From the NCBI RefSeq assembly GCF_041381155.1, contig NC_091142.1, forward strand, positions 34,955,604-35,019,603: a stretch of DNA of 64,000 nt, given 5' to 3'. This stretch comes from Argopecten irradians. Lineage: Eukaryota > Mollusca > Bivalvia > Pectinida > Pectinidae. The notes below the pieces were generated by a model. The model did not search any database and was not told where the DNA came from. It saw only the letters and a program-made list of their open reading frames with translations. Every line of letters begins with the position of its first letter. Position 1 is the stretch's first letter. Shown piece after piece: positions 1 through 49,801 of this stretch. Both the position numbers and the translations under genes were made by a program.

Positions 1-3000
1 TAAATGTTGAAAAATGTAACAGTGATTCAATTTCTGATTCTGCAAAAGATTCATCCATTGTAGCAAAGTTGAACCCAATAGATGTTTTTTTGTCTGTATT
101 TAAGTGTTTAGATCCAACATTGAAACGGCGAATTTGCCTGAAAATGTTCTCGTGTCGTCTTGCAATACCCCTCATTTTCCCTATTCAAACAGACAAACAT
201 CAATCAGAACGGTTGACGTTTTCTATGTGGCCTCTCCAACCAATAGTAGTTCACAATGGGGAAACAGAAACATCTATAGTTAACTGTAAACAAAACATCG
301 TGTCATTTATTAGACTAGGTCGGCTACCAATATCAAAATCAAAACTAGCAAATAGTCTTTTACACGATACGTCACATGATACGTTCTTCAATTACGATTG
401 TAAATTGGGTTCCAGTGATAAGAAAGCTAGTCTGGGGCTTGTTGAGGCATCTTGGTTTTTACCGTCCTTAAAACATGAAAGCTTATTTAAAACAGTGACT
501 TTAATGCTTAATTTAAGGGGTGACGCTTTTTGTAATGCAGAACAGGTAGATTATTTAAAAAGAGTATCCCATGTTATGGTAGTAGTTATTGATGTCATGA
601 CAATAAAAACCACAAATAAAAAATGGGAATATTTGAAAGCTTCTCATCAAAATATAGTATTTTTGATAACAGGAGAATTGCCAGCTAAAGATTTTATAAG
701 TAAGTGTACAAAACAATACATGCGATCAAAACCAAATGGTTTTAACGCAAAATTCATCCCGCTCATGAAAGATGGAAGGAATGCCAACATGGCGGAGATA
801 AAGGAAGAACTTTTGACTACAATTGGAAAATGGCTCGATGGAAAGAAAGCCCTTAAAAACATGCATGACCTGTGTAAGCATGCACAACAAATGTGTTTAT
901 CTGTAGATGAGGACGCACCCACATGCAAATTAGGAATGATGCTGGCAAATTTGATCTTTCATAAAGTCGAGAAATGCAGTCTTGGAGAAATAAAAACAAA
1001 GTTTACGCCATTACAAAAACAGCTCTGGAAAGAATACACGGACTCAATGAAAGAACTTTATAGGCCAGATCTTAATTTTAGAACAAAAGACAAGCTAAAC
1101 CAAAAAATGGTCGAACAAAGCGCAAAACAATGGGATGTTTTCAGACAGCAATTAGACTCATGGATGAAAGATGTTACATGTATCATAATTAATATCGATG
1201 GTGATGTATTGGTCCACTTTTTAGACTCATTATCTTTGTATTTAGATGAAAAGACAAGACTTGAAATTAATTATTATCATAACCGTTTTGATGACGCGTG
1301 TAATAAATTGAGTTTACTAAGATGTGAAAGTTCGGTGCAGACAGGTCATAGAGAGGTGGCACATGCACAGAAAGAGAGAGACAAGACTGAAGAGGAACTC
1401 AGCGAAGCATCGTTTGGTACAGAACATATTCTTCGTGAAATGGGCCAAATTTATGAGTCCAGTTTGAATTCTAATGACAACAGTTTTCGATCTCACTTAC
1501 CCTTTGCTGTGGCCAACATAATAAAACAAGGATACCCGTTTGAGTTGATGGATGGTGATGTTGGGAATATTCCATTACAGTGGGTAGAGCGCGTTTTTGA
1601 GGAACTTCAATCTATAATAAATAATGAACGTGTACTAACGTTATCAATTTTAGGACTACAAAGTTCAGGTAAATCAACATTACTTAACGCGATGTTTGGC
1701 CTGACATTTTCAGTAAGTGCAGGTCGGTGTACACGTGGAATTTATTTACAGATACTTCCTGTCAATAGTGACAACTTCAACTATGTACTTGTGGTCGATA
1801 CAGAAGGATTAAGAGCTCACGAACTTCGTGATCAGAGATACCAGCGTGATAACCAGCTTGCAACCTTAGTTTTAGGAATGTCCGATATAACTATTATCAA
1901 TGTCATGAGTGAAAATATCACTGAAATGTATGACATTTTAAAAATATCTGCCTCTGCATTCCTCAAGCTGAAAATGGCCAGCGAAAATCTTAAATTGAGC
2001 CAGTCTTGTGTTTTTGTTCACCAAAATATCGCAGATATGAATGCTAAAAGTTCCATGTTACAGGCAAGAAAAACACTCAATGAAATGCTCGATGAAATTA
2101 CACAAGACGCCGCTAAAACAGAAAAAGATTGTGATGTTACATCCTTTAATGACGTGATAAAGTTTGATAGTGATCAGCAAGTGTTTTATTTCTCTCCGTT
2201 ATGGAAAGGGGATCCCCCAATGGCACCTGCTAATCCTGCATATAGCAGAGATGTTCAACGGCTGAAATCGTTTATATTTGATAAATTGGCCAGACGAAAA
2301 AGTTCATATTTGAGTATTTCTGATGCATTTGTACACATCAAAGACCTCTGGAGCGCTATCCTAACAAATGATCTTGTTTTCAGTTTTACGAACAGTTTAG
2401 AATTGAAAGTATATGGTAAACTTGAAGAAAAATATCAGGAAATTATTTGGGATCTTGAAAAACATAAAAAAGAACTAGAAGCCAAAATGTTTGATGATGA
2501 TAAACTATATGAAACACTCAATAGCAAATATGATAAAAAGGTGAAGAAACTTAGAAATAATTTGCAAGATTATTTGGAGAATATTGAAAAGCGGCATGAC
2601 ATATCTAAATGGAAAGATGTCAAATTACACTCATGGGACATGTTTGCTCTCAGACTAAGAAAAACAAATATTAGATATGTATTCACGTGGTAAAGATGAA
2701 TATGAAAGCTTAGTTGCTTTTGCAACATTGACAAAGGGTATATATAGAAAAGCAACCGATCTCGCTTCATCAATGAAAGGAACACAATATGGTGATGTGG
2801 ATAAAACATTTAATGACCATTGGAACAAATGGATTCCAAAGGAAAATCAAGTACATCTAGTATCTTTAATGGAATCTATTGTACGCGAAACTTTTCGGGA
2901 GCAGCGAGATATTGTTATACCTGAGGAGCTCAACATCCAAACAAATGCAAGAAGTCATGTTGTTGGATTTTGTGATAGCAATGACATCGAAGAAAACTCT

Positions 3001-4441
3001 GGTGATGACATGAATTTAAACAAAATTGTTTTACCTTTTTCTCACATAAAACGTCGGTTAAAGTCACAAAGACGCCGCATGGCGAATAAATTTGCTAATG
3101 AAACACTTCGAGATATTGATTCCAAATTAGAAGGTATGTCTCAAATAAATTGGAAATTCAACGAGAAATTAATGAGAGAATGTCCAATGCATATCGTACA
3201 GCACATAGATGAATTTAACAGACAACACAGATTTACCCTCCTTGGATCTTTCAAATTAAAGCTTGTTGTTCGTTGTTTTAGGGAGACGCTTCCTAACTTT
3301 CAAAGATGTTATTCAGAATACAGGACTAAATATTGCATGGAAGCCAAATTACAACAATACAAACACAACGTTTTACAATATTTCCAAGATATCCTTACTG
3401 ACGTGCCTGATACTGTAATAGTCAGTAAAATGTTTTGTAATATCATTGAAACTCATGCTGAGGATAAAATCCGATCTGAACTGCCTTATCTAATATTTCA
3501 GCATACGGTTGTTAAATTTGGAAATTCAAAACAAATGTTGATGAAATGTGTATTAAAGGACTTAGCACAAAAGCAAAACTTTAATTCTTACAAAGATTAC
3601 ATCAAAGATCCTTACTCTTATACATTCAACTGGTTAAAAAAATATACTGATGGTGAATGTTTTGATAGTGGAGAGTATGTCAAAAATGTACTATTGAAAA
3701 CTTGATAAGATATTTACAGATATTTTTGATGTGATGAACAAATATAGCCCTTTGTCGACCTTGGATGAATGGATCAGTGATTTTCAAAAGGAAATAAAAG
3801 AAACATTGTGTGTTCAAACTGAATCATTAGTCGCAGTTGGATTTCTACCGATAACAAATTTGAACGATTTTATAGAATTCACCCAAGATAAACTAAAACA
3901 AGTACGCGACAGTTTAGAGAAACAATTTCTAAAAGACACAAAAACTACCATTAAATGGTATGGCAAATCACCATATGAAATGTCTATGGAAAAGCTTTGG
4001 GGTTGTCGAGCTACATGCCCCTTTTGCAATGAGCCATGTAAGTGGAATTCTGATCACAGCGGTCCTCATTCATGTATCCAACATAGACCACAGGGGGTCG
4101 CAGGACGTAAAAGGACCATCACGTCTAAACTTTGGGTTGAGAGCTGCAGTGATGTCGTGAGCACTTTGATATATACATATAAGTGTTTTCCTCATCAGGA
4201 CAACAAATGTGATGAAGGTCACTGGTTTACATATTCACACTTTTACAGAAATTACCGGGAGTTCTTCCCTGACTGGCACATCCCTCCCTGTAGTGACGTA
4301 TCAGGCTCTACATACTGGGCGTGGGTTCTTAAAACATTCAATGAAGATCTTACAAAACACTATGGTGCAAGAAATGCAGACATTCCATCAATATGGACGT
4401 TAATAACAAAACAAAATGCTATAGATAGTCTGCAAAAATGA
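1..4441 (+). CDS. VLIG/GVIN-like very large GTPase, 3' part, two apparent frameshifts
   Basis: Large GTPase of the interferon-induced very large GTPase (VLIG/GVIN, URGCP-related) family. The reading frame is open to the first base of the window (frame starting at position 3), so the gene begins upstream; the TTG at 69 is only an internal Leu. A family-typical N-terminal stretch (PIDVFLSVFKCLDPTLKRR, then CRLAIPLIFP) is followed by the G domain: P-loop GLQSSGKSTLLNAMFG from about 1653, a G2-like RCTRGIY near 1728, and G3 DTEGLRA from 1797. The C-terminal end holds a Cys/His cluster (CPFCNEPC, then HSC, QHRPQG) near 4017-4096, as in vertebrate members. The frame shifts near 2660 (AGAAAAACAAAT) and near 3700 (TTGAAAACTTGAT). 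Family-like sequence resumes at once each time, and one surplus A in each A-run explains both. No introns are visible, like the single giant coding exon of vertebrate members. Either recent pseudogenisation or homopolymer sequence errors. Family certain; intactness unsure. Confidence 0.88.
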
Positions 4442-9498: not shown

Positions 9499-9902
9499 TC
9501 ATAAACTATTGTAACTAGCTATAACTTGTTCTAGCGTAACAAAACTGTCTAAGAAGTCCTCCTCTGCGAGCCCGTGGCGGACATACTGATGAACATAGGC
9601 CCTCGAGGAGAACATACTCCACGCTTTGTCCACTATGTGATCCAGTGTCCGTACAGGTGTCCGACTGTTGGACACCAGAGAGGCGCTCTTCTCATAGCTA
9701 CTGAAGAGACGAGGCTGTGTGCCCGTCAGGAGACAGGCACCTTGAGGAACCCACGGGGCATACAAGGAAGGATCAGAGAACATTAAGGTGTCTGCGGATG
9801 CTGCATCCTTACCACGAAGCACAAGTAAGTTAGCGAGGGACCGATTGTGGCGACTACTTCCTCGAGGTGTTTCATCTCCTAACTTCACCTGCCAGTTTAT
9901 AC
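9499..9902 (-). CDS. TUBD1: TUBD1 exon 6 (C-terminal)
   Basis: Acceptor gctgtttcag/GT at 9902. The split Gly codon (G/GT) joins exon 5 as [13 protein letters not shown]. Contains [12 protein letters not shown], the family-typical [13 protein letters not shown], and the C-terminal EEDFLDSF before the stop at 9499. Length is 404 nt, in phase with exon 5. Confidence 0.93.
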
Positions 9903-12900
9903 CTGAAACAGCATCAATATCTGAAGTAAGAGTTTGTTCAATTATCTGTTATAGGACAGAGCGGTTTTTAATTTCACGATCAGGCTACCCGAGTGTTTAT
10001 TTCTCAAATCCAATTTTCATGATCATATCAAAGGGATCTTGGTGTCCAAAAAAGAATGATCTGTGTGTGACAATGGAAAGAGGATCTTTTCTCAGCTTTT
10101 CAAAGTTTGATTACATATGAAATCTAAGAATGATCCCTTTAGTACTTTCTGAAATACAGTGGTAACAAACTTCAATTATCCAAATCCAAGATGGCGGTCT
10201 GTTGGCCATCTTTTTGACTGATCAGGCTCAAAATGCAATATGCACAACTAGCTTAGGGTCTTAGGTGAATCTGCAATTGAGACAGATCTCTTCAGTACTT
10301 TCTGAAAAATAGTGGTAACAAACTTCAACTATCAAAATCCAAGAAAGGGGCCTGTCAGCCATCTTGTTGACCGATCCCAAAATCGTCCCAAAATGCAAAA
10401 TGCACATCTAAACCCCTAGAGGAACCAGCATATAAAATTTGAGAGATTCCTTCAGTACATTCTAAGCAATAGCGGTAACAAGAATTGATAACAGACTTAA
10501 GAACGGACGGACGGATGAACGGGGCTGACCATGGACCACGGATGAACGGGACTGACCATGGACCACGGATGATGGTTGGCTAAAAGTTTAAGTAAACCTT
10601 TATCTTCTCTTCTGTTAGATACCTTTAAAATCTCTTAGTTCATCAGCCATACCATTTAACAATGAACAAACAAGTGTTGCAATCAAGACAAACTAATATT
10701 GACATCCAGGAGCCCAAGTCTACCGCCTGGTGTTCCAAAATACCTTGGCGTTGACTTCTAGGGGAACTATAACCAACATTAATTAGCCTGTAACAGACAT
10801 TACGCATACTTACCTTCCTCCATGGCAGCGTCGGCAATAAGCATCTGTCTAAGGTGTTTGAGTAGTCCATGCCACTGGTAGGATGAAAAAGTCATAGCTG
10901 CCTCGGACATTTGAGGAATGTTCTTCACCGTTAACAACTTGTAGTCATTGTGGGGGACCAAGTGTTCCATCAACTCCCCTGTAGAAAAGGTCAAGGTCAT
11001 AACTGTACAAGAAAGTCAAGGTCATGACTTATGAAGTGAACATGATTTGCCTAGGTCAAGAGTATTATTGATTTAATGGAAATTATGATTATTGCTAGAA
11101 AATAGAAAGGTAATCATATTACGAGTGTCAATTTATTTTAAATGATATTTCAATTGAAATTCTGTAAAAAACACATTTTTCCAAACAATCTGATAAAAAC
11201 TTAATTAATAAACTCAAACAGATTTATGTTTTACAACATAGTCTGATAATTAATCGCAGTTACAACCGAAGTGAAATAATATTATAATCATCTAAATATA
11301 CAATGTCATTTACATAAATGGACACTTTTACACATCTTATTTCACCTTTGATAATAGCATTCAAGGGGACACAACAGCATATCACAGATTTAGTTAATGT
11401 GTGCATACATGTGTATTGTCTATTTTGCCGTGCATAGGGTCTTCATCACTTGTATTACCATATGGGAGAGAAAAAAGAGGGTGAATTGGTACCATTGTCG
11501 TAGTGAGTATCCTGTTATAATGACCTAATGGAGGAGGGCATACATCATGTATAGAGCGAAAAAGGTTTTCATGTTTTAATAAGAGTGAAATATTATCACC
11601 TACTAATTAAAAGGAAATCTTCTTGCCAGAGGACACTGAAGTTCGTAAAAAGAAACCTGCTCTACAAAATGACCATATAACAAATGGAATTTTTGGTAGT
11701 GCAAGGTAAAAGCAGAAAGTGTTTCTTCTGTGTTAAATAATAATTCTCATTAACAACCTGAAAACATTGACAAATCAATTAATTGATATGAATTATACAC
11801 TATTTACCTAGTGTATTCTGACAGGAGAAGCCAGGGTATTTGTCCACCATCACTGGCTGTAGTACACTACCTAACACTTACCTAGTGTATTCTGACAGGA
11901 GAAGTCAGGGTATTTGTCCACCATCACTGGCTGTAGTACACTACCTAACACTTACCTAGTGTATTCTGACAGGAGAAGTCAGGGTATTTGTCCACCATCA
12001 CTGGCTGTAGTACACTACTAACACTACTAGTGTATTCAGTCGGGTATTTGTCCACCATACTGCTGTGTACACTACCTAAACTTACTATTCTGACAGGAGA
12101 AGTCAGGGTATTTGTCCACCATCACTGGCTGTAGTACACTACCTAACACTTACCTAGTGTATTCTGACAGGAGAAGTCAGGGTATTTGTCCACCATCACT
12201 GGCTGTAGTACACTACCTAACACTTACCTAGTGTATTCTGACAGGAGAAGTCAGGGTATTTGTCCACCATCACTGGCTGTAGTACATTACCTAACACTTA
12301 CCTAGTGTATTCTGACAGGAGAAGTCAGGGTATTTGTCCACCATCACTGGCTGTAGTACATTACCTAACACTTACCTAGTGTATTCTGACAGGAGAAGCC
12401 AGGGTATTTGTCCACCATCACTGGCTGTAGTACACTACCTAACACTTACCTAGTGTATTCTGACAGGAGAAGCCAGGGTATTTGTCCACCATCACTGGCT
12501 GTAGTACACTACCTAACACTTACCTAGTGTATTCTGACAGGAGAAGCCAGGGTATTTGTCCACCATCACTGGCTGTAGTACACTACCTAACACTTACCTA
12601 GTGTATTCTGACAGGAGAAGCCAGGGTATTTGTCCACCATCACTGCTGTATGACATCACCTAACACTTACCTATGTATTCTGACAGGAGAAGCAGGGTAT
12701 TTGTCCACCATCACTCGCTGTAGTACACTACCTAACACTTACCTAGTGTATTCTGACAGGAGAAGCCAGGGTATTTGTCCACCATCACTGGCTGTAGTAC
12801 ACTACCTAACACTTACCTAGTGTATTCTGACAGGAGAAGCCAGGGTATTTGTCCACCATCACTGTCTGTAGTACACTACCTAACACTTACCTAGTGTATT

Positions 12901-15900
12901 CTGACAGGAGAAGCCAGGGTATTTGTCCACCATCACTGGCTGTAGTACACTACCTAACACTTACCTAGTGTATTCTGACAGGAGAAGCCAGGGTATTTGT
13001 CCACCATCACTGGCTGTAGTACACTACCTAACACTTACCTAGTGTATTCTGACAGGAGAAGCCAGGGTATTTGTCCACCATCACTGGCTGTAGTACACCT
13101 ACCTAACACTTACCTAGTGTATTCTGACAGGAGAAGTCAGGGTATTTGTCCACCATCACTGGCTGTAGTACACTACCTAACACTTACCTAGTGTATTCTG
13201 ACAGGAGAAGCCAGGGTATTTGTCCACCATCACTGGCTGTAGTACACTACCTAACACTTACCTAGTGTATTCTGACAGGAGAAGTCAGGGTATTTGTCCA
13301 CCATCACTGGCTGTAGTACACTACCTAACACTTACCTAGTGTATTCTGACAGGAGAAGCCAGGGTATTTGTCCACCATCACTGGCTGTAGTACACTACCT
13401 AACACTTACCTAGTGTATTCTGACAGGAGAAGCCAGGGTATTTGTCCACCATCACTGGCTGTAGTACACTACCTAACACTTACCTAGTGTATTCTGACAG
13501 GAGAACAGGGTATTTGTCCACCATCACTGGCTGTAGTACACTACTAACACTTACCTAGTGTATTCTGACAGGAGAACCCAGGAGTATTTGTCCACCATCA
13601 CTGGCTGTAGTACACTACCTAACACTTACCTAGTGTATTCTGACAGGAGAAGTCAGGGTATTTGTCCACCATCACTGGCTGTAGTACACTACCTAACACT
13701 TACCTAGTGTATTCTGACAGGAGAAGCCAGGGTATTTGTCCACCATCACTGGCTGTAGTACACTACCTAACACTTACCTAGTGTATTCTGACAGGAGAAG
13801 TCAGGGTATTTGTCCACCATCACTGGCTGTAGTACACTACCTAACACTTACCTAGTGTATTCTGACAGGAGAAGTCAGGGTATTTGTCCACCATCACTGG
13901 CTGTAGTACACTACCTAACACTTACCTAGTGTATTCTGACAGGAGAAGCCAGGGTATTTGTCCACCATCACTGGCTGTAGTACACTACCTAACACTTACC
14001 TAGTGTATTCTGACAGGAGAAGCCAGGGTATTTGTCCACCATCACTGGCTGTAGTACACTACCTAACACTTACCTAGTGTATTCTGACAGGAGAAGCCAG
14101 GGTATTTGTCCACCATCACTGCTGTAGTACACTACCTAACACTTACCTAGTGTATTCTGACAGGAGAAGTCAGGGTATTTGTCCACCATCACTGGCTGTA
14201 GTACACTACCTAACACTTACCTAGTGTATTCTGACAGGAGAAGCCAGGGTATTTGTCCACCATCACTGGCTGTAGTACACTACCTAACACTTACCTAGTG
14301 TATTCTGACAGGAGAAGTCAGGGTATTTGTCCACCATCACTGGCTGTAGTACACTACCTAACACTTACCTAGTGTATTCTGACAGGAGAAGTCAGGGTAT
14401 TTGTCCACCATCACTGGCTGTAGTACACTACCTAACACTTACCTAGTGTATTCTGACAGGAGAAGTCAGGGTATTTGTCCACCATCACTGGCTGTAGTAC
14501 ACTACCTAACACTTACCTAGTGTATTCTGACAGGAGAAGTCAGGGTATTTGTCCACCATCACTGGCTGTAGTACACTACCTAACACTTACCTAGTGTATT
14601 CTGACAGGAGAAGCAGGGTATTTGTCCACCATCACTGGCTGTAGTACACTACCTAAACACTTACCTAGTGTATTCTGACAGGAGAAGTCAGGGTATTTGT
14701 CCACCATCACTGGCTGTAGTACACTACCTAACACTTACCTAGTGTATTCTGACAGGAGAAGTCAGGGTATTTGTCCACCATCACTGGCTGTAGTACACTA
14801 CCTAACACTTACCTAGTGTATTCTGACAGGAGAAGCCAGGGTATTTGTCCACCATCACTGGCTGTAGTACATTACCTAACACTTACCTAGTGTATTCTGA
14901 CAGGAGAAGTCAGGGTATTTGTCCACCATCACTGGCTGTAGTACACTACCTAACACTTACCTAGTGTATTCTGACAGGAGAAGTCAGGGTATTTGTCCAC
15001 CATCACTGGCTGTAGTACACTACCTAACACTTACCTAGTGTATTCTGACAGGAGAAGCCAGGGTATTTGTCCACCATCACTGGCTGTAGTACACTACCTA
15101 ACACTTACCTAGTGTATTCTGACAGGAGAAGTCAGGGTATTTGTCCACCATCACTGGCTGTAGTACACTACCTAACACTTACCTAGTGTATTCTGACAGG
15201 AGAAGTCAGGGTATTTGTCCACCATCACTGGCTGTAGTACACTACCTAACACTTACCTAGTGTATTCTGACAGGAGAAGTCAGGGTATTTGTCCACCATC
15301 ACTGGCTGTAGTACACTACCTAACACTTACCTAGTGTATTCTGACAGGAGAAGTCAGGGTATTTGTCCACCATCACTGGCTGTAGTACACTACCTAACAC
15401 TTACCTAGTGTATTCTGACAGGAGAAGCCAGGGTATTTGTCCACCATCACTGGCTGTAGTACACTACCTAACACTTACCTAGTGTATTCTGACAGGAGAA
15501 GCCAGGGTATTTGTCCACCATCACTGGCTGTAGTACACTACCTAACGAGGGTACTTTACCTAGTGTATTCTGACAGGAGAAGCCAGGGTATTTGTCCACC
15601 ATCACTGGCTGTAGTACACTACCTAACACTTACCTAGTGTATTCTGACAGGAGAAGCCAGGGTATTTGTCCACCATCACTGGCTGTAGTACACTACCTAA
15701 CACTTACCTAGTGTATTCTGACAGGAGAAGTCAGGGTATTTGTCCACCATCACTGGCTGTAGTACACTTACCTAACACTTACCTAGTGTATTCTGACAGG
15801 AGAAGTCAGGGTATTTGTCCACCATCACTGGCTGTAGTACACTACCTAACACTTACCTAGTGTATTCTGACAGGAGAAGTCAGGGTATTTGTCCACCATC

Positions 15901-18900
15901 ACTGGCTGTAGTACACTACCTAACACTTACCTAGTGTATTCTGACAGGAGAAGTCAGGGTATTTGTCCACCATCACTGGCTGTAGTACACTACCTAACAC
16001 TTACCTAGTGTATTCTGACAGGAGAAGTCAGGGTATTTGTCCACCATCACTGGCTGTAGTACACTACCTAACACTTACCTAGTGTATTCTGACAGGAGAA
16101 GCCAGGGTATTTGTCCACCATCACTGGCTGTAGTACACTACCTAACACTTACCTAGTGTATTCTGACAGGAGAAGTCAGGGTATTTGTCCACCATCACTG
16201 GCTGTAGTACACTACCTAACACTTACCTAGTGTATTCTGACAGGAGAAGCCAGGGTATTTGTCCACCATCACTGGCTGTAGTACACTACCTAACACTTAC
16301 CTAGTGTATTCTGACAGGAGAAGCCAGGGTATTTGTCCACCATCACTGGCTGTAGTACACTAACACTTAACTTATTGTGACAGGATCAGCCAGGGTATTT
16401 GTTGATATCTGGCTGTATGTAAACTTTCTTTAGATTCAGCAGCTGGTTGAGCGAAAGAAACTTTCTGGATTCAGCAGCTGGGAGCAGTCTGGATGTTCTC
16501 CATGACGATAAGAGCGTCAGCAGTACGGTAGAGATGTGACAGAGTAAGAACTGCATTATAATTCTGGACAATCACCTCTCCCATACTGAAACAAAACAAA
16601 GGTTTGATACAAATTATAATTTATAGTATAACCCCTCTAACTCAAACCACCATTCTTCAAATATCCCCCATTCGTCAAACTAATCGCATGGTCCTGACCA
16701 CATTTCATGTAACAAAACCCTGGATAGCTCAAACAGCTATTCGTCAAATACCCCTTATCTCTCAAATAGAAATATATCCCTGTTTCATCAAATACAAACA
16801 TGTAGTATTAAAACATGTATCCATCACACATGTGTTCAACCCTAAAGAAATTTTCAAAAAGTATTTTATGTAATACATATATGTTTTCAATTTGATATAG
16901 CTATGATAAACCACTTTTATAAAGATTCATAATGCTGAAAATCATGGTAATTAAAATGTCATTGACATATATTGTTTGTCAGAGTTTGAGACAAACCATT
17001 TAACTATCGATGATCGATCATGACCAACTTTTAGTGAATCAAATACACTGTATTCCTCGAACTATTGATCGCTGTTTGAGGTATTAGAGTTTTAGAGAAT
17101 GGTATATAATTTTTTCATATATTAGTTGTTTTAAATTAATCATTGTTTTCAATTAAAAAAGTATTTGTTAAATCCAGAATTAAATTTTTTAAGGCTATCT
17201 AATGATAGCAATAAATTGTTTTTCCTTAAATAAATAACCTTATTAAAACTTATAAGAATATACAATGATTTTAGAAACAAAATTCTGAATATAATTTTGT
17301 AAAATCAACAAGTCAAAATTAGAAGGGTTTTATGAAATATATTGAATAAATCAAAAACTGTTTACACAAGACTTTACCCTTTTTCAATCAATATCTTTCA
17401 AAACTTTCGAAGCAATATGAAAGTAAATTGGTAATTAATTTTTAACAAATAATTTTAAGATACATTGAAAGCCAATTCCTGTATATACCTGTATGGAAGA
17501 ACAACCTGGTTGAGAAGGAAGGAATGAGGAAACTCGTCTTTTATACACTCTGTGATGTATGCTCCCACCCCTGACCCTGTCCCTCCTGCTACACTCATCA
17601 GAGATAAGAAGCCAGACAGGTTGTCACATTTCTCAGCCTCTCTTTGGACCATCTCCATGACCTTGACCTCCTGTCCGTGACCATGGATACAGTAGCCATG
17701 TGCCCAGTTGTTCCCCGATCCTTTCTGTTGACAAAGTTGTTGTTTGGCTGGATACATCCATTGTCCAGTTTTCTTGGCATCACTACAGGTCTGGGCTATC
17801 ACCTAAATAAATAAAACGCCAAATATACCTCAAGGTCAGACTCAAGGTCAGGGCAATCACCTAAATAAATACAGCACCAAATATACCTCAAGGTCAGACT
17901 CAAGGTCAGAGCTATCACCTAAATAAATAAAACACCAAATATACATCAAGGTTAGGCCTAAGGTCAGGGTCATCACTTAATTAAATAATACACCAAATAT
18001 AACTCAAGGTCAGGCTCAAGGTCATAGCTATCACCTTAATAAATACAGCACCAAAACAATATCTCAAGGTCAGGCTCAAGGTCATGGTCATCACCGTAAG
18101 AAATAAAACAACAAACATAACTCAATTTCAGGGCTATCGATCATCTAAGTTAAGAAAAACTAACTTAGGTACATACATATTAAACATATTTTTAATCACG
18201 ATCTCTAATAGCTACATAGGGAGTTCAACATAGTGACTGGGACTTCACATTCACTACATATCTATGAATAAGACTTACCAAGGGTAAACATGCCTGATTT
18301 TTAACACAAAATATCAAAATATTTTATCATGAGGAATTTAGAAATATCCCTAGATATGTGTGGCCAGCTCACTGTCTCCAAATGGGACATGACTAAAGGG
18401 AAACAGAATATGGCTATCACTAAGCTAATTTTGATGGCAGAATATAAAAAAAGTTCAAATGTTATTTATTTTAATAAATTAAACAAAATCTTCTAGTCTA
18501 TGAATGGTTTTATTGTAAATATTTCTGAATAAACTAGAATGTCTTGGTTATTGAAAGAAATCTGACATTTCACATGTATCACAAGTACTCTGCCTATTTG
18601 GTATTGTTGCATCTTTAAAGAATACATATCTTGAAACAGTTTGTAGATACTAGCTCTGTACCAGGCTAAGCCCAAGTTGTTGTTTTTTGTTCAAGAACTT
18701 TCATTTTCATTACCAAAACAAAATCAGAATTGTCCTAAAATGATGTAACTGTTCAAGGACATAAACAAAATGAAAGACAAGGTCAGCTGAACATTACCTT
18801 TGGTTCCATATCCACCATTACTGCCCGGGCTTCAGGTACACCGTCTTTGGTATGGTCGTTGTAGAAAAACCGAGACAGAACCTCTTCTTTATAGGCTTGG

Positions 18901-19343
18901 TTCTTATCAGGGGCAACCTTTATAACATAGTATTATATATCACACACTTCGTCAATAACCACACATCACACTTTATACAAAAGTTACATAAACATGTTCA
19001 CAAGGACATGTATTCTGTCATTGCAGGTTGTAGAGTTACCATCCTTGTGTGTATGTATCCTTCGTGACTGAAACTCGCGTTGTTGTCTCTAAATAGTATA
19101 TATGACATTACACTTGAAATCACATGTCACAATCAATACCTAACTATGCAAACACAGAATATTAAGACTTGAACCAGCAACCCCTGAACCTTAATTGAAA
19201 TGCTCTGTTTTTATCTATGATAGTGTATATTTACGAACCTGTGTTTGAGAGGGTTTAGTGAGAACATCATCGATGAAGGTCTGGAAGAGCTGACCTCCGA
19301 CCTGATTCCCACACTGACCAAGCTGTAGTGTAATCACAGACAT
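9499..19343 (-). CDS. TUBD1: Delta-tubulin gene, six exons (exon 4 damaged)
   Basis: Delta-tubulin is a centriole/basal-body tubulin needed for triplet microtubules. Coding exons in gene order: 19343-19239, 18917-18798, 17802-17489, 16585 to about 16301, 10978-10814, 9902-9499. Splice phases agree at every junction except around exon 4. Visible landmarks: tubulin N-terminus [16 protein letters not shown], the nucleotide-binding signature [19 protein letters not shown], the delta-specific [10 protein letters not shown] and [11 protein letters not shown], and the C-terminus [21 protein letters not shown]; all align with human delta-tubulin by recall. The middle of exon 4 (about 16500-16376) is out of frame and roughly 30 nt too short, so the gene as written would not yield a full protein. 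Two minisatellites duplicate its own splice sites (see separate entries). Identity is very secure; functionality is uncertain because array-edge sequence may be misassembled. Confidence 0.93.
10100..10500. repeat. Second block of the 'CCAAGATGGC' repeat in TUBD1 intron 5
   Basis: About 2.5 further units of the repeat seen at 6320-6790 (ccaagatggcggtctgttggccatc, then aatatgcacaac, then agtactttctgaaa). They are followed at 10503-10575 by 'acggacggacgg' and two copies of a 27-bp phrase containing 'ctgaccatggaccacggatga'. Intronic. Confidence 0.6.
10814..10978 (-). CDS. TUBD1: TUBD1 exon 5
   Basis: Acceptor cttttctacag/GG at 10978 and donor GGAAG/gtaagtatgcg at 10813. Encodes [20 protein letters not shown] through [20 protein letters not shown] to AAMEEG. 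The first codon is completed by the final G of the exon 4 sequence CTA-G, giving [13 protein letters not shown], which identifies the 74-bp array unit as exon 4 sequence. Confidence 0.94.
10979..11805. other. TUBD1 intron 4, part between exon 5 and the array
   Basis: AT-rich intron sequence. No gene, no recognisable mobile element. On the gene strand the sequence just past the last array donor reads gtaaatagtgtataattc, the likely ancestral start of intron 4. Confidence 0.6.
11806..16376 (-). repeat. 74-bp minisatellite of TUBD1 exon 4 end plus 5' splice site, about 62 copies
   Basis: Unit of 74 bp repeated head to tail about 62 times. Read on the gene strand each unit is AGTGTACTACAGCCAGTGAT... 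ending AATACACTAG/GTAAGTGTTAGGT. It translates as [21 protein letters not shown], the delta-tubulin segment equivalent to human SVFQP...NPLG, directly before [10 protein letters not shown] of exon 5. So each unit is about the last 60 nt of exon 4 plus the first 14 nt of intron 4, with a near-perfect GTAAGT donor. Most copies are identical apart from one alternating base (gaagCcaggg or gaagTcaggg on the + strand; PGF or PDF in protein). Degenerate copies lie near 12024, 12080, 12650 and at the gene-proximal end. The unit is not a multiple of three, and reading past a donor gives L-G-K-C-stop. Confidence 0.92.
16301..16585 (-). CDS. TUBD1: TUBD1 exon 4, disrupted
   Basis: Acceptor ttgttttgtttcag/T at 16585. 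Opens with [21 protein letters not shown] then [10 protein letters not shown] in correct phase, then reaches TGA near 16463. Beyond that, family-like fragments lie in different frames (QLLNPE, KVSFAQ, LNQLLN), about 79 nt where human has 111 nt between the ENDAIH and FQP codons. A short direct duplication (CCAGCTGCTGAATC, near 16433 and 16472) lies inside the damage. A diverged first array copy follows (QPDINKYPG). The first canonical donor of the array is at 16300. Real decay or an assembly artefact at the array edge are both possible. Confidence 0.75.
16586..17488. other. TUBD1 intron 3, no other feature
   Basis: Very AT-rich intron of about 0.9 kb between donor CATACAG/gtatat (17488) and acceptor tttcag/TATGGG (16586). 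I see no mobile element or ORF with family resemblance. Confidence 0.6.
17489..17802 (-). CDS. TUBD1: TUBD1 exon 3 with the tubulin GTP-binding signature
   Basis: Begins [18 protein letters not shown] directly after VDMEPK of exon 2. It holds [37 protein letters not shown] (quoted in parts: the signature is GGTGSG) and ends LNQVVLPY-S. Its acceptor, ttatttatttag/GTGATAGCC at 17802, is the first of a set of tandem look-alikes running into intron 2. Confidence 0.94.
17796..18125 (-). repeat. 58-bp minisatellite carrying the TUBD1 exon 3 acceptor, about 6 copies
   Basis: On the + strand 'atcacctaaataaata...caccaaatatacctcaaggtcagactcaaggtcaggg' recurs about every 58 bp. On the gene strand each unit contains tttatttag/GTGATAGC or a close variant, i.e. 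the real exon 3 acceptor and the first eight or so exon bases. The second and third copies keep the AG/GTGAT core exactly; the fourth to sixth are degenerating (ttaattaag/TGATG, tttattaag/GTGATAG, ttcttacg/GTGATG). Copies lie upstream of exon 3 within intron 2. Confidence 0.85.
18126..18797. other. TUBD1 intron 2, remainder
   Basis: AT-rich intron sequence, no recognised element. Bounded by donor CCAAAG/gtaatg at 18797. Confidence 0.55.
18798..18917 (-). CDS. TUBD1: TUBD1 exon 2
   Basis: Exactly 40 codons, in phase at both ends: [20 protein letters not shown] then [20 protein letters not shown]. Acceptor ttataaag/GTTGCC at 18918 and donor AAAG/gtaatgttc at 18797. [12 protein letters not shown] matches the tubulin RAVLVDMEPKV block. 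Confidence 0.93.
19239..19343 (-). CDS. TUBD1: TUBD1 exon 1 with start codon
   Basis: ATG at 19343-19341. Encodes [20 protein letters not shown] then [15 protein letters not shown], ending on a whole codon at donor ACACAG/gttcgtaa. The start equals that of other tubulins (M[13 protein letters not shown]), so it is well supported. Confidence 0.93.
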
Positions 19344-19689: not shown

Positions 19690-20568
19690 AAAAATATCTC
19701 AATAGTGATGATACAATGTTGTGATGGTACAATGTTGTGGTGATGGTACAATGTTGTGGTGTTACAATGTTGTTGTGATGGTACAATGTTGTGGTGATGG
19801 TACAATGTTGTGGTGATGTTACAATGTTGTGATGTTACAATGTTTTGATGATGTTACAATGTTGTGATGTTACAATGTTGTGATGTTACAATGTTGTGAT
19901 GTTACAATGTTTTGATGATGTTACAATGTTGCGATGTTACAATGTTGTGATGTTACAATTTGTGATGTGTGATGTTACAATGTTTTGATGATGTTACAAT
20001 GTTGTGATGTTACAATGTTTGTGATGTTACAATGTTGTGATGTTACAATGTTGTGGTGTTACAATGTTGTGATGTTACAATGTTGTGATGTTACAATGTT
20101 GTGATGTTACAATGTTGTGATGTTACAATGTTGTGATGTTACAATGTTGTGATGTTACAATGTTGTGATGTTACAATGTTGTGATGGTTACAATGTTTGT
20201 GATGTTACAATGTGGTGATGTTACAATGTTGTGATGTTACAATGTTTGGTGATGTTACAATGTTGTGATGTTACAATGTTGTGGTGTTACAATGTTGTGA
20301 TGTTACAATGTTGTGATGTTACAATGTTGTGATGTTACAATGTTGTGATGTTACAATGTTGTGATGTTACAATGTTGTGATGTTACAATGTTTGTGGTGA
20401 TGTTACAATGTTGTGATGTTACAATGTTTTGTTGTGATGTTACAATGTTGTGATGTTACAATGTTGTGTGATGTTACAATGTTGTGATGTTACAATGTTG
20501 TGATGTTACAAATGTTATGTTGTGTGTGTTACAATGTTGTGATGTTACAATGTTGTGATGTTACAATG
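19690..20568. repeat. 16-bp minisatellite, block 1
   Basis: Unit gatgttacaatgttgt repeated dozens of times with small length variants. It is interrupted at 20569 by a TTAA-flanked MITE. Confidence 0.92.
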
Positions 20569-20572
20569 TTAA

Positions 20573-21087
20573 AGCCACACTATACGTAACTATCAACAAA
20601 AATTCAAGTAAAATTTGACTCAGATATTGTTGTACATTTGTATTGTAGATGTAGTTGAAATTAAAGTATATTAAAGAATATTTATAATTTTTTTTAATAA
20701 CTTTGGTGGTACAGCAGTTGTTGAAAGTCGATACATGTAAACATGCCTTCATTTTAAACTGGTCGCCATAGAAGTTATGATTATTGCCGAACGGAAGTGC
20801 AAAGTTCATGAACCGTTTTTGGAAGAGTTCGGACAGAGTTACGTTAGTTAATGTCACATGACGTTCTCGGCAACGACATTGTTACAATCGTCGGCTAATA
20901 TCAGCTTGTTTGACTAAGTGGGACCACCTAGCGATATTTACATATTTATTTGATTTCATCAAAATATTCCGAATCATAATACTCATCTTGACTTCGATTT
21001 TGTCTATCTCTGCATGGCTTACAACATGATTTTTTTTACATTGATTCTAAATCATGAAAAAAATAAGAAAGATACGGTATTGGGCCT
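20573..21087. mobile_element. TTAA-flanked MITE, AGCCACACTA...GGGCCT type
   Basis: About 515 bp flanked on both sides by TTAA (20569-20572 and 21088-21091) with imperfect terminal inverted repeats (TTAAAGCCAC and GGGCCTTTAA). No ORF with transposase similarity. TTAA target duplication is characteristic of piggyBac-type transposition. It sits inside the 16-bp minisatellite and is repeated at 21900-22394. Confidence 0.75.
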
Positions 21088-21091
21088 TTAA

Positions 21092-21899
21092 GGTATTACA
21101 ATGTTGTGATATTACAATGTTGTGGTGCTACAATGTTGTGATGTTAAACATTTTAAGATATCACAATTTTGTTGATGTTACAATGTTGTGATGTAACAAT
21201 GTTGTGATGTTACAATGTTGTGATGTTACAATGTTGTGATGTTACAATGTTGTGGTGAACAATGTTGTGATGTTACAATGTTGTGTTGTGATGTTACAAT
21301 GTTGTGATTTGTTGTGATGTTACAATGTTGTGATGTTACAATGTTGTGATGTTACAATGTTGTGATGTTACAATGTTGTGATGTTACAATGTTGTGTGTT
21401 TGTGATGTTACAATGTTGTGATGTTACAATGTTGTGGTGTTACAATGTTGTGATGTTACAATGTTGTGATGTTACAATGTTGTGTGTTACAATGTTGTGA
21501 TGTTACAATGTTGTGGTGTTACAATGTTGTGATGTTACAATGTTGTGGTGTTACAATGTTGATGTGTTACAATGTTGTGGTGTTACAATGTTGTGATGTT
21601 ACAATGTTGTGATGTTACAATGTTGTGATGTTACAATGTTGTGATGTTACAATGTTGTTGTTACAATGTGGTGGTGCTACAATGTTGTGATGTTACAATG
21701 TTGTGATGTTACAATGTTGTGGTGCTACAATGTTGTGATGTTACAATGTTGTGGTGTTACAATGTTGTGATGTTACAATGTTGTGATGTTACAATGTTGT
21801 GATGTTACAATGTTGTGATGTTACAATGGGGGGGGGGGTTGTGATGTTACAATGTTGTGTGTTATTTTACAATGTTGTGATGTTACAATGTTGATGTTT
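21092..21899. repeat. 16-bp minisatellite, block 2
   Basis: Same gatgttacaatgttgt unit. Begins with a distinctive degenerate stretch (taagatatcacaattttg near 21155) that recurs after the second MITE copy. A G-run lies near 21829. Confidence 0.9.
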
Positions 21900-22394
21900 G
21901 CCACACTATACGTAACTATCAACAAAAATTCAAGTAAAATTTGACTCAGATATTGTTAGTATTTGTAGATGTAGTTGGAATTAAGGTATATTAAAGAATA
22001 TTTATAATTTTTTTTAAATAACTTTGGTGTGTTGAAAGTCGATACAATGTAAACATGCCTTCATTTTAAACTGGTCGCCATAGAAGTTATGATTATTGAA
22101 GTGTCATACGTTTTTTGGAAGAGTTCGGGACAGACCTTACGTAGTTACGGGAGTCACATGACGTTCTCGGCAACACGTTACAATGTCAGGCTAATTTTCG
22201 GCTTGTTTGACTAAGTGGGACCCACCTGGTGATATTTAATATTTATTTGATTTTCATCAAAATATTCCGAATCATAATCACTGATCTTGACTTCGATTTA
22301 GTCCATTCTCTGCATTGGCTTACAAACATGATTTTTTTTCAACATTCTTCTAAATCATGAAAAATAAATAAGAAATGGATACGGTATAAGGGCT
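21900..22394. mobile_element. Second copy of the TTAA MITE, duplicated with its flank
   Basis: Matches 20573-21087 along its length but with many small indels. Its 3' flank (ggtatacaatg..., then aaggtatccacaattttg near 22460) also matches the flank of the first copy. So it arose by segmental duplication of about 1.3 kb, not by a second insertion. Confidence 0.75.
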
Positions 22395-22398
22395 TTAA

Positions 22399-23425
22399 GG
22401 TATACAATGTTGTGTTATTACAATGTTGTGGTGCTTACAATGTTTTGATGTTACAATGTTAAGGTATCCACAATTTTGTAATGTATAAATTGTTGTGATG
22501 TAACAATGTTGTGATGTTACAAATGTTGTGGTGCTTTACAATGTTGTGATGTTAACTATGTTGGTGATTTTACAATTTTGATTTATTACAATTGAATGTT
22601 GTGGTGCCTACAATGTTTACAATGTTGTGATGTTACTATGTTGTGGCATTTACAATGTTGTGATGTTTACAATGTTTGTGATGTTTCAATGTTGCGGTGT
22701 ACAATGTTGTGCAATGTTACAATGTTGGTGATGTTATAATGTATGTGGTGTTACAATGTTGTGATGTTATTACAATGTTGTGGTGTTACAATGTAGTGAA
22801 GTTACAATGTTGTGATGTTACAATGTTTGTGTGTTACAATGTGTGATGTTTACAATGTTTACAATGTACAATGTTGTGTGTTACAATGTTGTGATGTTAC
22901 AATGTTGTGATGGTGTTACAATGTGTTGTGTGTGATGTTACTACAATGTGTTGTGATGTTACAATGTGTTGTGTTGTGGTGTTACAATGTTGTGGTGCTA
23001 CAATGTTGTTGTGATGTTACAATTTTGTGGTTACAATGTTGTGGTGCTACAATGTTGTGGTGCTACAATGTTGTGTGATGTTACAATGTTGTGGTGTTAC
23101 AATATTGTGTACAATGTTACAATGTTGTGTGTTACAATGTTGTGGTGTTACAATGTTGTATGTAAATGTTGTGGTGTTACAATGTTGTGTGCTACAATGT
23201 TGTGATGTTACAATGTGTGTGTTACAATGTGTGATGTTACAATGTTGTGGTGTTACAATGTTGTGATGTTACAATGTTGTGGTGTTACAATGTGTGATGT
23301 TACAATGTTGTGATGTTACAAAGTTGTGATGTTACAATGTTAATTTTGTGATGTTACAATGTTGTGATGTTGCGATGTTGGCGTGTGTTACAATGGCGTG
23401 ATGTTACAATGTTGTGATGTTACGA
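22399..23425. repeat. 16-bp minisatellite, block 3 (degenerate)
   Basis: Same unit as blocks 1 and 2 with more base and length variation (ggtgctacaatg, ggtgttacaatg). Short ORFs across it only translate the repeat (CCGVTML-like) and are not genes. Confidence 0.85.
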
Positions 23426-33985: not shown

Positions 33986-34739
33986 GTAATATGTCGGGTT
34001 ATTATACGCTGTTCGCTATATCAAAACAGCATCAAAAAGTAATCTATGAAAGTTAGATAAACGGACATTGTTCAAAGCCCTTGATAATACATGTATATAT
34101 AAAATAGTGTTATTCACCGGGCAAATATGTTGATACTGTGACCAGTTTATTACTAGCTGTTGACGTTTTGCTACCTATTTGAATAACATGATCATATCAT
34201 ATGATCAAAAATTCAAATGTCTAGCAAATATCAACGAAAATTCCGAAACCCGTATTAACGATAGTATACATACATATACAGTTGTCCCAATCTATGTTTT
34301 AAACAAGCCAAATAACTCATTCTGATAAATGGACACCTGAAAATGGGAGGATTCCATTTAAATATTAATTTAAATGGGAAACAGACCAGTTGTATTTTGT
34401 ACATATTTAGTTGTGCTTCATTATTTGCCACGACAAAACAGTCTTAGAAAATACGATTTGTACTTAAATATCAATGAATAGTTAAATACAAAACACATTT
34501 GAGTTGTGATTTGGCGGCCGCACTGATCCACACGAAACTCAATATAATTGAACCAACCTTTAACTGTTGAATGAGACATCAGGGAATGGAAAATTAAAAT
34601 CACCATACATATTGCTCCCGTTGGGTAAATGGTAAATTAAAATCAAAGTATGTACCTGAAACATTTTCAATGACAAAACAAAAGTTCTAATATTTTTTTA
34701 AGATTTTCTCTTTTGTTGTTGTCAGAGAGGTCGTCCAAC

Positions 34740-36476
34740 ATGGCAGAAATTCGGGCACCCATTAAATCACCGACCGACAGGAGACAGCAGGAAGACAAGT
34801 TCGTTTCGACTGAGGCGAGTAATACGCCCTTGCATCCTAAGACTATTGTATGTAAACCTTGTGAACGTAAAGGCAAAAAGAACGTTCCTGCACAATTCTG
34901 GTGTACGACGATCGATAACTTTTTATGTTCAGAATGTAAAGTCGGCATACATGATATGTTACATCCTGAGTGTGAACCAGAGTGCATCGAGAAATATTCA
35001 AGCAAACAGGATACATCGTTAAGTAAATGTCGAACGCACCACCACAAAACGATGGAATTTTTTCTGTGAAGATCACATGGAACCAATATGTGACAAGTGT
35101 AACGTCACCAAACACAAAAGTTGCAAGGTCGTTACATCATCAGAGGAGTTCGTTAGCGAATTCAAGAACAGTCCTGACGGGAAAGAATTTCATTTGGAAC
35201 TCCAGAATTGTATGGACACATTGGAAGCACTAAGCAAAGATACTGACTCCCAAATTCAGACTATGTCTTGTGATAAAGAGACAGCACTCCAGAATTTAAT
35301 GAATTTTCAAACAGAGATCGAAGAACGTGTTTATGCTCTACAAGAAGAACTGAAAGACAAACTGGAAACTTCGTACAGTGACGAGAGAGAAAAGCGTCAG
35401 GCATCCAGACAGAAATGTGAACAGATGAAGCTCGACATAAAGTACACTCTGAAGACTTCGGAGGAATTGAAGGATGACAACGCGACTATGATGTGTCTGA
35501 TTTATAAGGGCCAGAATGAGGTAAAAGCCTGCAAGGACCTTGTACAGGAGATGGAAAAGACCTGTCTAACGACCAGACTGTCACATGAGTTCGACGCCTC
35601 TCGTTGCTTGAACAGCATCACTATGGGAAAGATTGTTATCCGCCAACATCAGCGGCAGCTACCATCAACGATGTATAGCGTTGTATTGTCGAAACGACGC
35701 TTGGAGGATCTAAGGAAATTCAATATAAAACATCCTTCAGACAAAAACCAATGCTGCGCGTTTGGAATAGTTTTCCTGTCTGATGGCCGAATAGTTGTAG
35801 GAGATAATGCCAATAAAAATGTTAAACTTTATACAAAAGATGGTGACTACCTGAGTCGCATGACGCTTACAGATGAATCCAGTGATATCTGCCTTATCGA
35901 CGATTGCTCCGTCGCAGTGATGCTAGTGACCACTCGAACCATCTGCGTGATCAATTTCGAAAGCCATTCTAAGCCAGTTTCGACAAATATCGAGATATCA
36001 AACATAACAGAAAACTGTTTTGGATTAACATTCAACAACACGTTCTTTGTGGTGGGCACAGATAAACTATATACATTGTACCGTCAATGGGAGGCGAAGC
36101 GAAAAGGCTGCGTCACAACGAATCTAAATGCTTGCATCTCTGCAGCGATCGACAGAATGGTATGGTGTTCGCCGGTATTGACAACAAAGTAGCTATGATC
36201 CCATCAGAGGATAAGACGAGCATAAAAGCAGTGGATATTAGTGAGGTGGAGGGTGCAGCAGGGATAGACGTGGACAGGGCAGGCAATGTGTATGTGTGTG
36301 GAGGAAGGTCACAGAACGTCGTACAGATGTCTAAGGACGGAACCAACATCAGGACACTTTTGACCTCAGACGCCATCAAACGGCCGCGGGCGATTGCTGT
36401 GTGGAGAAACATAGTAGCAATCACATCAGAATCATTGGGCCAAAGGAACTTTGTTCATATGTTCCAGCTCGTTTGA
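34740..36476 (+). pseudogene. TRIM-like B-box protein gene, copy 1, two frameshifts
   Basis: Copy of the gene at 41889-43625. ATG at 34740, just after a strong polypyrimidine/CAG acceptor (ttttctcttttgttgttgtcag). Encodes B-box 1 (CKPC...FWC...CSEC...H), B-box 2 (CRTHHHKTMEFF), coiled coil and a C-terminal propeller-like region. Against the intact copy it has one extra T in the T-run at 35056-35062, which truncates the protein within B-box 2 (EFFL-stop), and one missing base at about 36065 (gataaactata against gataagtctata). Apart from these the two copies are nearly identical at protein level, so the damage is recent, or is a sequencing error. The part from 35077 to 36192 stays open for 371 codons and could give an N-terminally truncated protein. 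Confidence 0.8.
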
Positions 36477-41120: not shown

Positions 41121-41888
41121 GTAATATGTCGGGTTATTATACGCTGTTCGCTATATCAAAACAGCATCAAAAAGTAATCTATGAAAGTTAGATAAACGGA
41201 CATTGTTCAAAGCCCTTGATAATACATAAGTATATATAAAAATAGTGTTATTCACCAGGCAAATATGTTGATATTGTGACCAGTTTATTACTAACTGTTC
41301 ACGTTTTGCTACCTATTTGAATAAATTATTCATATGATCAAAAATTCAAATGTCTTGCAAATATCAACGAAAATTCCCAAAACCGTGTTAACGATAGTAT
41401 ACATACATATACAGTTGTCCCAATCTATGTTTTGAACAAGCCAAATAACTCATTCTGATAAATGGACACCTGAAAATGGGAGGATCCCATTTAAATATTA
41501 ATTTAAATGGGGGGATCCCATTTAAATATTAATTTAAATGGGAAAAATTGTATTTTGTACATATTTAGTTGTGCTTAATTATTTGCCACGACAAAACAGT
41601 TTTAGAAAATACGATTTGTACTTAAATATCAATGAATAGTTAAATACAAAACACATTTGAGTTGTGATTTGCCGACCGCACTGTTCCACACGAAACTCAA
41701 TATAATTAAACCAACCCTTAACTGTTGAATGAGACATCAGGGAATGGAAAATTAAAATCACCATACATATTGCTCCCGTTGGGTAAATGGTAAATTAAAA
41801 TCAAAGTATGTACCTGAAACACTTTCAATGACAAAACAAAAGTTCTGATATTTTTTCTCTTTTGTTGTTGTCAGAGAGGTCGTCCAAC

Positions 41889-49764: not shown

Positions 49765-49801
49765 AGCGTCTTATCTAAATCATCAGTTACACGTTTTACC
49801 T

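What the first reader, a model, noticed from the sequence alone, without database searches (positions are those of the whole stretch)
11806..16376. About 62 tandem copies of a delta-tubulin exon end together with its 5' splice site
The 74-bp unit is not anonymous satellite. On the gene strand it encodes [21 protein letters not shown], which fits exactly between exon 4 and [10 protein letters not shown] of exon 5, and each copy carries AG/GTAAGT. A coding exon/intron boundary has thus been turned into a 4.6-kb array of dozens of near-perfect donors in one intron. Reading past any donor gives L-G-K-C-stop, so only use of the donor nearest the coding side could give a normal protein. All later copies would be U1-binding decoys. 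This may tune splicing, R-loops or transcript length.
Basis: partly seen in the sequence, partly recalled or inferred. Interest (0 to 1): 0.88.

Follow-up and report, generated by a model that had tools for sequence, protein, structure and literature searches.

The report
Repeated exon end with splice site
In a scallop gene for delta-tubulin, the end of one coding exon with its splice signal has been copied about 62 times in a row, and the same genome holds other genes whose exon ends are followed by rows of repeated splice signals.

Summary
Window 11800-16364 (minus strand) is 62 copies of a 74-bp unit: about 63 nt of exon 4 of the only delta-tubulin gene that I found in this 846-Mb genome, plus the start of intron 4. 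AGGTAAGT is intact in 58 of 62 copies. Pecten maximus delta-tubulin, 95% identical, has this peptide once in the right place.

Two corrections. First, exon 4 is garbled just before the array (about 16365-16497): small deletions, a repeated piece and stops. As assembled, the join I read gives no full protein. Second, 59 of 62 units also hold an acceptor-like site.

It is not a one-off. Of 15 other donor-bearing arrays whose start I could see, 4 start at an exon end with database support and 3 more with weaker support; 5 showed no exon there.

The closest known case is the human ABCA7 intron-18 VNTR. My best reading is a minisatellite grown from an exon-intron junction. The exon-side donor is probably used and the rest is tolerated intron. 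The decoy and R-loop roles are untested.

The parts
11800..16364 (-). array: 62 copies of a 74-bp unit = about 63 nt of exon 4 end + start of intron 4 (CTAG|GTAAGTGTTAG)
   Evidence: TRF; wrap-around alignment; counts; only place found in the own genome
16301..16585 (-). exon 4 as assembled, from its acceptor to the first intact donor; coding start ([10 protein letters not shown]...VMEN) good, then garbled
   Evidence: Pfam Tubulin E 1.7e-4 for the first part, below the curated cut-off
16365..16497 (-). garbled junction between exon 4 and array: small deletions, repeated CAGCTGCTGAATC, degenerate unit, stops
   Evidence: sequence, compared by eye with P0001; translation
11807..11830 (-). last copy end with native donor CTAG|GTAAATAG (last exon base 11808), then native intron
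10979..11806 (-). rest of intron 4; ends in a 25-bp x 2.1 tandem repeat (10979-11029) that holds a second acceptor-like site at 11002
10814..10978 (-). exon 5 ([10 protein letters not shown]...MEEG), 165 nt, a multiple of 3
9500..9902 (-). exon 6 to stop codon
17489..17802 (-). exon 3
   Evidence: Pfam Tubulin E 1.4e-20, above cut-off
17787..18132 (-). 58-bp x 5.9 tandem repeat that repeats the exon 3 acceptor: ATTTAG before GTGAT in 3 of 6 copies, the real site included
18798..18917 (-). exon 2
19239..19343 (-). exon 1 with ATG

Best explanation
This is a minisatellite that grew from the exon 4 / intron 4 junction of a scallop delta-tubulin gene. A tandem duplication with one break in the exon and one just inside the intron copies the donor along with the exon end. 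The original exon keeps a working donor on its right, so the duplication does little harm and can expand by slippage or unequal exchange. In the transcript the most likely donor is the one nearest the exon side, and the remaining copies (about 4.5 kb) are spliced out as intron. A small share of transcripts using a later donor would gain a stop and be lost. The same kind of array sits at other exon ends in this genome, which fits tolerated mutation in a repeat-rich genome better than a purpose special to delta-tubulin. SHOWN: array, unit content, single locus found, other exons intact, frame effect of donors 1-4, other arrays at exon ends. INFERRED: growth mechanism, which donor is used, and that the garbled exon 4 junction is a consensus error rather than a real break.
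For: Unit peptide in P. maximus at the same place, once. Delta-tubulin exons found only here; other tubulin hits are 39% identical or less (94 of 127 candidates scored). Exons 1-3 read in frame; exons 3 and 5 show no amino-acid difference from P0001. From an intact exon end the first donor gives the normal join; donors 2-4 give LGKC-stop. The array donor scores 6.26 against 1.42-7.72 for the gene's four other donors (recalled matrices). In the ABCA7 VNTR, one-unit retention was about 2% of transcripts and did not change with array size (PMC5954066, section read). Other arrays start at exon ends: WD40 L071, Arrestin_C L063, NIPA L072 above Pfam cut-offs, TGFBI/periostin-like L077 E 5.4e-5.
Against: No RNA was available, so donor use is not shown. 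As assembled, exon 4 is broken before the array, so nothing proves a working protein. No near-identical protein of this species appears in the listed matches of two searches of the large protein set (120 best of 1317; 68). Units also have an acceptor-like site that could start other splicing.
Confidence: 0.6

Rival explanations
1. The gene is really broken. The rearrangement at the exon 4 / array edge destroyed about 28 codons and the frame, and the array expanded in a dead or dying allele.
For: As assembled, stops follow VMEN and most of the piece matching DINKVITHKLA is missing; no second intact copy found in the genome.
Against: The other exons and their splice sites are intact and conserved. 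The damage is a dense cluster of small edits at an array edge, like the noisy copies 60-61, 53 and 13 inside the array.
Confidence: 0.15
2. Assembly artefact: the true array is much shorter or longer, or the noisy copies are consensus errors, so the number 62 is not real.
For: 40 of 60 edits sit in 5 of 62 copies and 36 of 60 are deletions, as in poorly polished long-read consensus.
Against: 43 of 62 copies are clean, with a mixed G/A pattern that a simple over-assembly would not give. An error in copy number would not remove the array.
Confidence: 0.1
3. The array is spliced inside itself. Each unit is a small cassette: acceptor-like CTTCTCCTGTCAG, 10-nt microexon AATACACTAG, donor GTAAGT. 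The array is then removed in steps or yields microexon isoforms.
For: CTTCTCCTGTCAG is in 59 of 62 copies. In 29 of the 59 it scores 5.36 or more, above the five real acceptors (-5.56 to 4.82); in the 30 with the A variant it scores 4.43, above four of the five.
Against: Scores rest on recalled matrices, and 24 sites elsewhere on this strand of the window score 4.43 or more, 11 of them 5.35 or more. An intron between neighbouring copies would be only 64 nt. One or two microexons shift the frame and three add a stop.
Confidence: 0.08
4. The copies act as U1 decoys that tune splicing, polyadenylation or speed of transcription.
For: 58 strong donors in one intron. In ABCA7, longer arrays raise skipping of the next exon (PMC5954066).
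Against: No direct evidence here. Array diversity is too low to test for constraint on the donor. Donor-bearing arrays occur at many other loci.
Confidence: 0.07

Closest known systems
Human ABCA7 intron 18 VNTR (PMC5954066; passages and section 21 read)
   Same: Tandem repeat that starts at a coding exon's donor, with donor use one unit further on observed; reported alleles of about 12 to 427 units; placed between two coding exons; next exon in frame (there 44 aa, here 55 codons).
   Different: ABCA7 unit is 25 bp and starts at the GT; here the unit is 74 bp and about 63 nt of it are coding exon. Effects on splicing are measured there and unknown here. My paper searches brought up no report of several such arrays in one genome.
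[quoted passage not shown] potato RdRp, PMC4974935, abstract and results section read)
   Same: Tandem duplication across an exon-intron boundary that copies splice signals; AGGT at the unit ends.
   Different: Potato: one extra copy and a proven new intron at an acceptor side. Here: 62 copies of a donor side, no proof of a new intron.
Ordinary coding or intronic minisatellite / VNTR (recalled)
   Same: Unit length, high identity, patchy variants, repeat-rich surroundings.
   Different: The unit spans a splice junction, so nearly every copy carries a splice signal.

Membership tests
Donor-carrying VNTR (ABCA7 type) | Units carry a 5' splice site | tested here: met
   AGGTAAGT in 58 of 62 copies
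Donor-carrying VNTR (ABCA7 type) | Array starts at the donor of a real coding exon | tested here: inconclusive
   Unit peptide is the exon 4 end by homology, but the exon/array join is garbled. Clean joins seen in L063, L071, L072, L077
Donor-carrying VNTR (ABCA7 type) | Copy number varies between individuals | not testable with these tools
   One assembly only
Donor-carrying VNTR (ABCA7 type) | Length changes splicing of neighbouring exons | not testable with these tools
   No RNA data
[quoted passage not shown]
   Both signals present by score; use unknown
[quoted passage not shown]
   No RNA data
Delta-tubulin gene | Exons encode delta-tubulin in order | tested here: met
   P0001 95% identical over the alignment; exon by exon match; exon 4 second half missing as assembled

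The most novel reading that the evidence does not exclude
Exon-end minisatellites are a recurrent class of mutation in this scallop genome. A tandem duplication that spans an exon end and its donor keeps one working donor, escapes selection and expands, so that many genes carry rows of near-perfect donors behind a coding exon. The donor word may itself favour array growth: among six 8-mers of the same composition it has the most triple-in-tandem hits (6785 against 896-4044). Each such gene would be a natural test of how the spliceosome chooses among dozens of identical donors.
Probability: 0.35. Interest if true: 0.75.

Novelty: new variant of a known kind. Interest (0 to 1): 0.52.

Why it matters
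Competition between identical 5' splice sites has mostly been studied with two or three sites in made constructs (recalled). Here nature offers about 58 near-identical sites behind one exon, and at seven other exon ends in the same genome (four well supported, three less so) 8 to 38 such sites within the 3-kb pieces that I held. That makes the rule for donor choice (exon side, intron side, or spread) directly readable from RNA. It also shows a way by which minisatellites can occupy coding boundaries without killing a gene, and a possible cause of gene-model errors: the P. maximus orthologue carries the label LOW QUALITY PROTEIN, cause not known.

Tried and rejected
Chance overlap: tandem repeats cover 22% of the window (24 arrays, merged by me from the 42 TRF rows). 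Three of ten delta-tubulin junctions touch one, which circular shifts give in 35% of cases; counting distinct arrays that touch a junction, 3 or more in 5.8%. So overlap alone is not surprising.

RNA structure of three units: z = 0.49, rejected. Higher-order repeat pattern in the G/A variant: none clear up to lag 30. Constraint on the donor among copies: too little diversity to test.

Second delta-tubulin locus or haplotig with an intact exon 4: none found.

A codon model to call exons at array starts was too weak. Known exon 3 of the gene itself scored P 0.18; 3' flanks meant as controls scored P 0.004 (L065) and 0.047 (L077); and L078, which I class as no exon, scored P 0.04. Well-supported L071, L072 and L077 scored P 0.57, 0.24 and 0.41. 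I therefore rest on Pfam and PDB matches. PDB searches with the L073 and L075 peptides found nothing.

Donor word as a hot spot: triple-in-tandem hits (gaps 12-42) were AGGTAAGT 6785, TGAATGGA 896, AGTAGGAT 1627, TAGGATGA 1438, GTAGAATG 4044, GTAAGATG 2341. Single-site counts were taken for two of the six words only: AGGTAAGT 52563 and TGAATGGA 45462. One large array gives many hits and the words differ widely among themselves, so this is suggestive only.

Papers: ten searches answered. In their listings I saw no report of several donor arrays in one genome or of this scallop locus; of the listed papers I opened two. Subscription papers are mostly not held.
Full report
What is there. On the minus strand the window holds a delta-tubulin gene in six exons: 19343-19239, 18917-18798, 17802-17489, 16585-(about 16301), 10978-10814 and 9902-9500. 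Pfam matches exon 3 to the tubulin GTPase domain above its cut-off (E 1.4e-20); exons 1 and 4 match it below the cut-off, and exons 2, 5 and 6 have no match. The best relative among 1317 matches is Pecten maximus tubulin delta chain-like, marked LOW QUALITY PROTEIN by its source, 95% identical over the alignment. A second window gene also has a relative on a P. maximus contig of the same length as the one with P0001, which fits conserved linkage. The assembly has 845.8 Mb in 1508 contigs.

The array. 62 copies of a 74-bp unit run from 16364 to 11800, with one more degenerate copy at the upstream edge. The copies are nearly identical: 43 of 62 have no edit apart from one common G/A variant, which is mixed along the array (32 G, 30 A). 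40 of the 60 other edits fall in 5 copies and 36 of the 60 are deletions, which looks like patches of poor consensus. The number 62 should be taken as approximate. The unit search found no other place in the genome.

What the unit is. It reads [21 protein letters not shown] and then GTAAGT. P0001 and P0002 have [30 protein letters not shown] and [30 protein letters not shown] once at this place. AGGTAAGT is in 58 of 62 copies. CTTCTCCTGTCAG, an acceptor-like site 10 nt before the donor, is in 59 of 62. By simple matrices recalled from memory it scores 5.36 or more in 29 of the 59 and 4.43 in the 30 with the A variant, against -5.56 to 4.82 for the five real acceptors; 24 sites elsewhere on this strand of the window reach 4.43, so such sites are not rare. 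The array donor scores 6.26, against 1.42, 2.67, 1.56 and 7.72 for the donors of exons 1, 2, 3 and 5, and 2.21 for the native donor of the last copy; 6 other sites on this strand score as high.

Between VMEN (about 16498) and the first good copy (16364) exon 4 is garbled. Against P0001 it lacks the DH codons and a few more bases, repeats the piece CAGCTGCTGAATC, and then runs into a degenerate copy (by eye). Joined as assembled through the first intact donor, the message stops soon after VMEN. Later donors leave that break in place, so in this assembly I see no donor that gives a full protein. Since the other exons are open and conserved, with no amino-acid difference from P0001 in exons 3 and 5, and since no second locus was found, I think a consensus error at the array edge more likely than a dead gene, but cannot show it.

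Frame logic. From an intact exon end, donor 1 gives the normal join to GELMEHL. Donors 2, 3 and 4 all give LGKC-stop. One or two 10-nt microexons shift the frame and three add a stop. Use of the TTAG|GTAGTG site would add 21 codons in frame per copy, but that site scores only -3.72. Exon 5 is 165 nt, so skipping it keeps the frame.

Is it a one-off? No. A genome scan for three AGGTAAGT with gaps of 12-42 gave 6785 hits, against 896 for the reversed word; single words occur 52563 and 45462 times. Four more control words gave 1627, 1438, 4044 and 2341. The donor word is highest of six, by 1.7 to 7.6 times. Patterns that need a change at position -3, so that each array gives few hits, gave 59 against 3 and 31 against 6.

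Where those arrays start. One search lists 29 distinct arrays on the large contigs by my count, plus hits on three small contigs. I held DNA for 19 of the 29, and the 5' edge was in view in 13; with the two arrays first listed (L021, L024) that makes 15. At 4 of 15 the first donor ends an exon with database support: WD40 (L071, 34.0 bits, cut-off 27), Arrestin_C (L063, 29.6, cut-off 27.7), NIPA (L072, 28.6, cut-off 26.2), and TGFBI/periostin-like (L077, E 5.4e-5; no Pfam match). At 3 of 15 the support is weaker: L073 (AhpC-TSA_2, E 0.018, below cut-off; no PDB match), L065 (a collagen-like G-X-Y stretch, by eye) and L024 (an acyltransferase-like exon by eye; an upstream exon matches the NRF domain at E 0.056, below cut-off, while the exon itself had no match). 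L055 and L075 rest on codon use only, from a weak model, and L064 is unclear; none of these three had a Pfam match. At 5 of 15 I saw no exon at the array start: L021, L061, L066 (the array lies after an exon-like stretch without a Pfam match), L076 and L078. The other 16 of the 29 arrays were not judged (6 without the edge in view, 10 not fetched), nor the arrays (loci withheld). The exon share of the unit differs: 22 nt in L063, 25 in L073, 32 in L024, 17 in L055, 11 in L064, and 1 to 7 nt in L065, L071, L072, L075 and L077. Delta-tubulin, with about 63 nt counted from its unit, is the largest of these.

Other junctions of the same gene. The exon 3 acceptor lies in a 58-bp x 5.9 repeat in which 3 of 6 copies keep an ATTTAG|GTGAT site, the real one included, and the exon 5 acceptor at the end of a 25-bp x 2.1 repeat. 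Given that repeats cover 22% of the window, three touched junctions of ten is not rare by chance. This argues for tolerance in repeat-rich surroundings and against a special role.

How it most likely works. A duplication across an exon end restores the donor it splits, so it is nearly harmless. Expansion then follows as in other minisatellites. The exon-side donor is probably used; the rest leaves with the intron. The closest measured case is the ABCA7 VNTR: it starts with the exon 18 donor, had about 12 to 427 units, showed retention of one unit in about 2% of transcripts regardless of length, and skipping of the next exon rose with length (PMC5954066; passages and section 21 read). I expect the same pattern here. 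The general idea that tandem duplication can move or make splice sites is known (PMC4974935, abstract and results section read).

Verdict. Real; a new variant of a known kind. What is new, as far as my searches show, is the large coding share of the unit and the recurrence at several exon ends of one genome. Function as a decoy is not shown. I saw no print record of several donor arrays in one genome in the listings of my ten searches.

Noticed in passing
17787-18132: 58-bp x 5.9 tandem repeat that duplicates the exon 3 acceptor of the same gene; the two upstream acceptors that I read shift the frame.
   Followed up: partly
10979-11029: 25-bp x 2.1 repeat ending exactly at the exon 5 acceptor, with a second acceptor-like site at 11002.
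   Followed up: partly
L024, L052, L053 (C1:2883000-2902000 of the own genome): 41-bp array of several kb whose unit reads like MFYFHRYWR followed by a donor, at the end of an acyltransferase-like exon (by eye); large exon share as in delta-tubulin.
   Followed up: partly
own genome contigs C586 and C1021 against C5:46016544, and C944 against C7:23218839: Matched strings on small contigs equal or resemble those of the main-contig arrays; possible second haplotypes that could show copy-number differences.
   Followed up: no
34674-36473 and 41832-43622: Two very similar B-box/TRIM-like genes; the second is 99% identical to a protein of unnamed source (P0121); the first is split over several frames.
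   Followed up: no
3-4438: Long open frames on the plus strand that look like a large GTPase gene of the VLIG kind, by eye.
   Followed up: no
48181-49770: Minus-strand voltage-gated potassium channel-like open frames, by eye.
   Followed up: no
whole window: Tandem repeats cover 22% of the window, including a 3.7-kb array of a 16-bp GTGATGTTACAATGTT unit at 19705-23423 just upstream of the gene.
   Followed up: no
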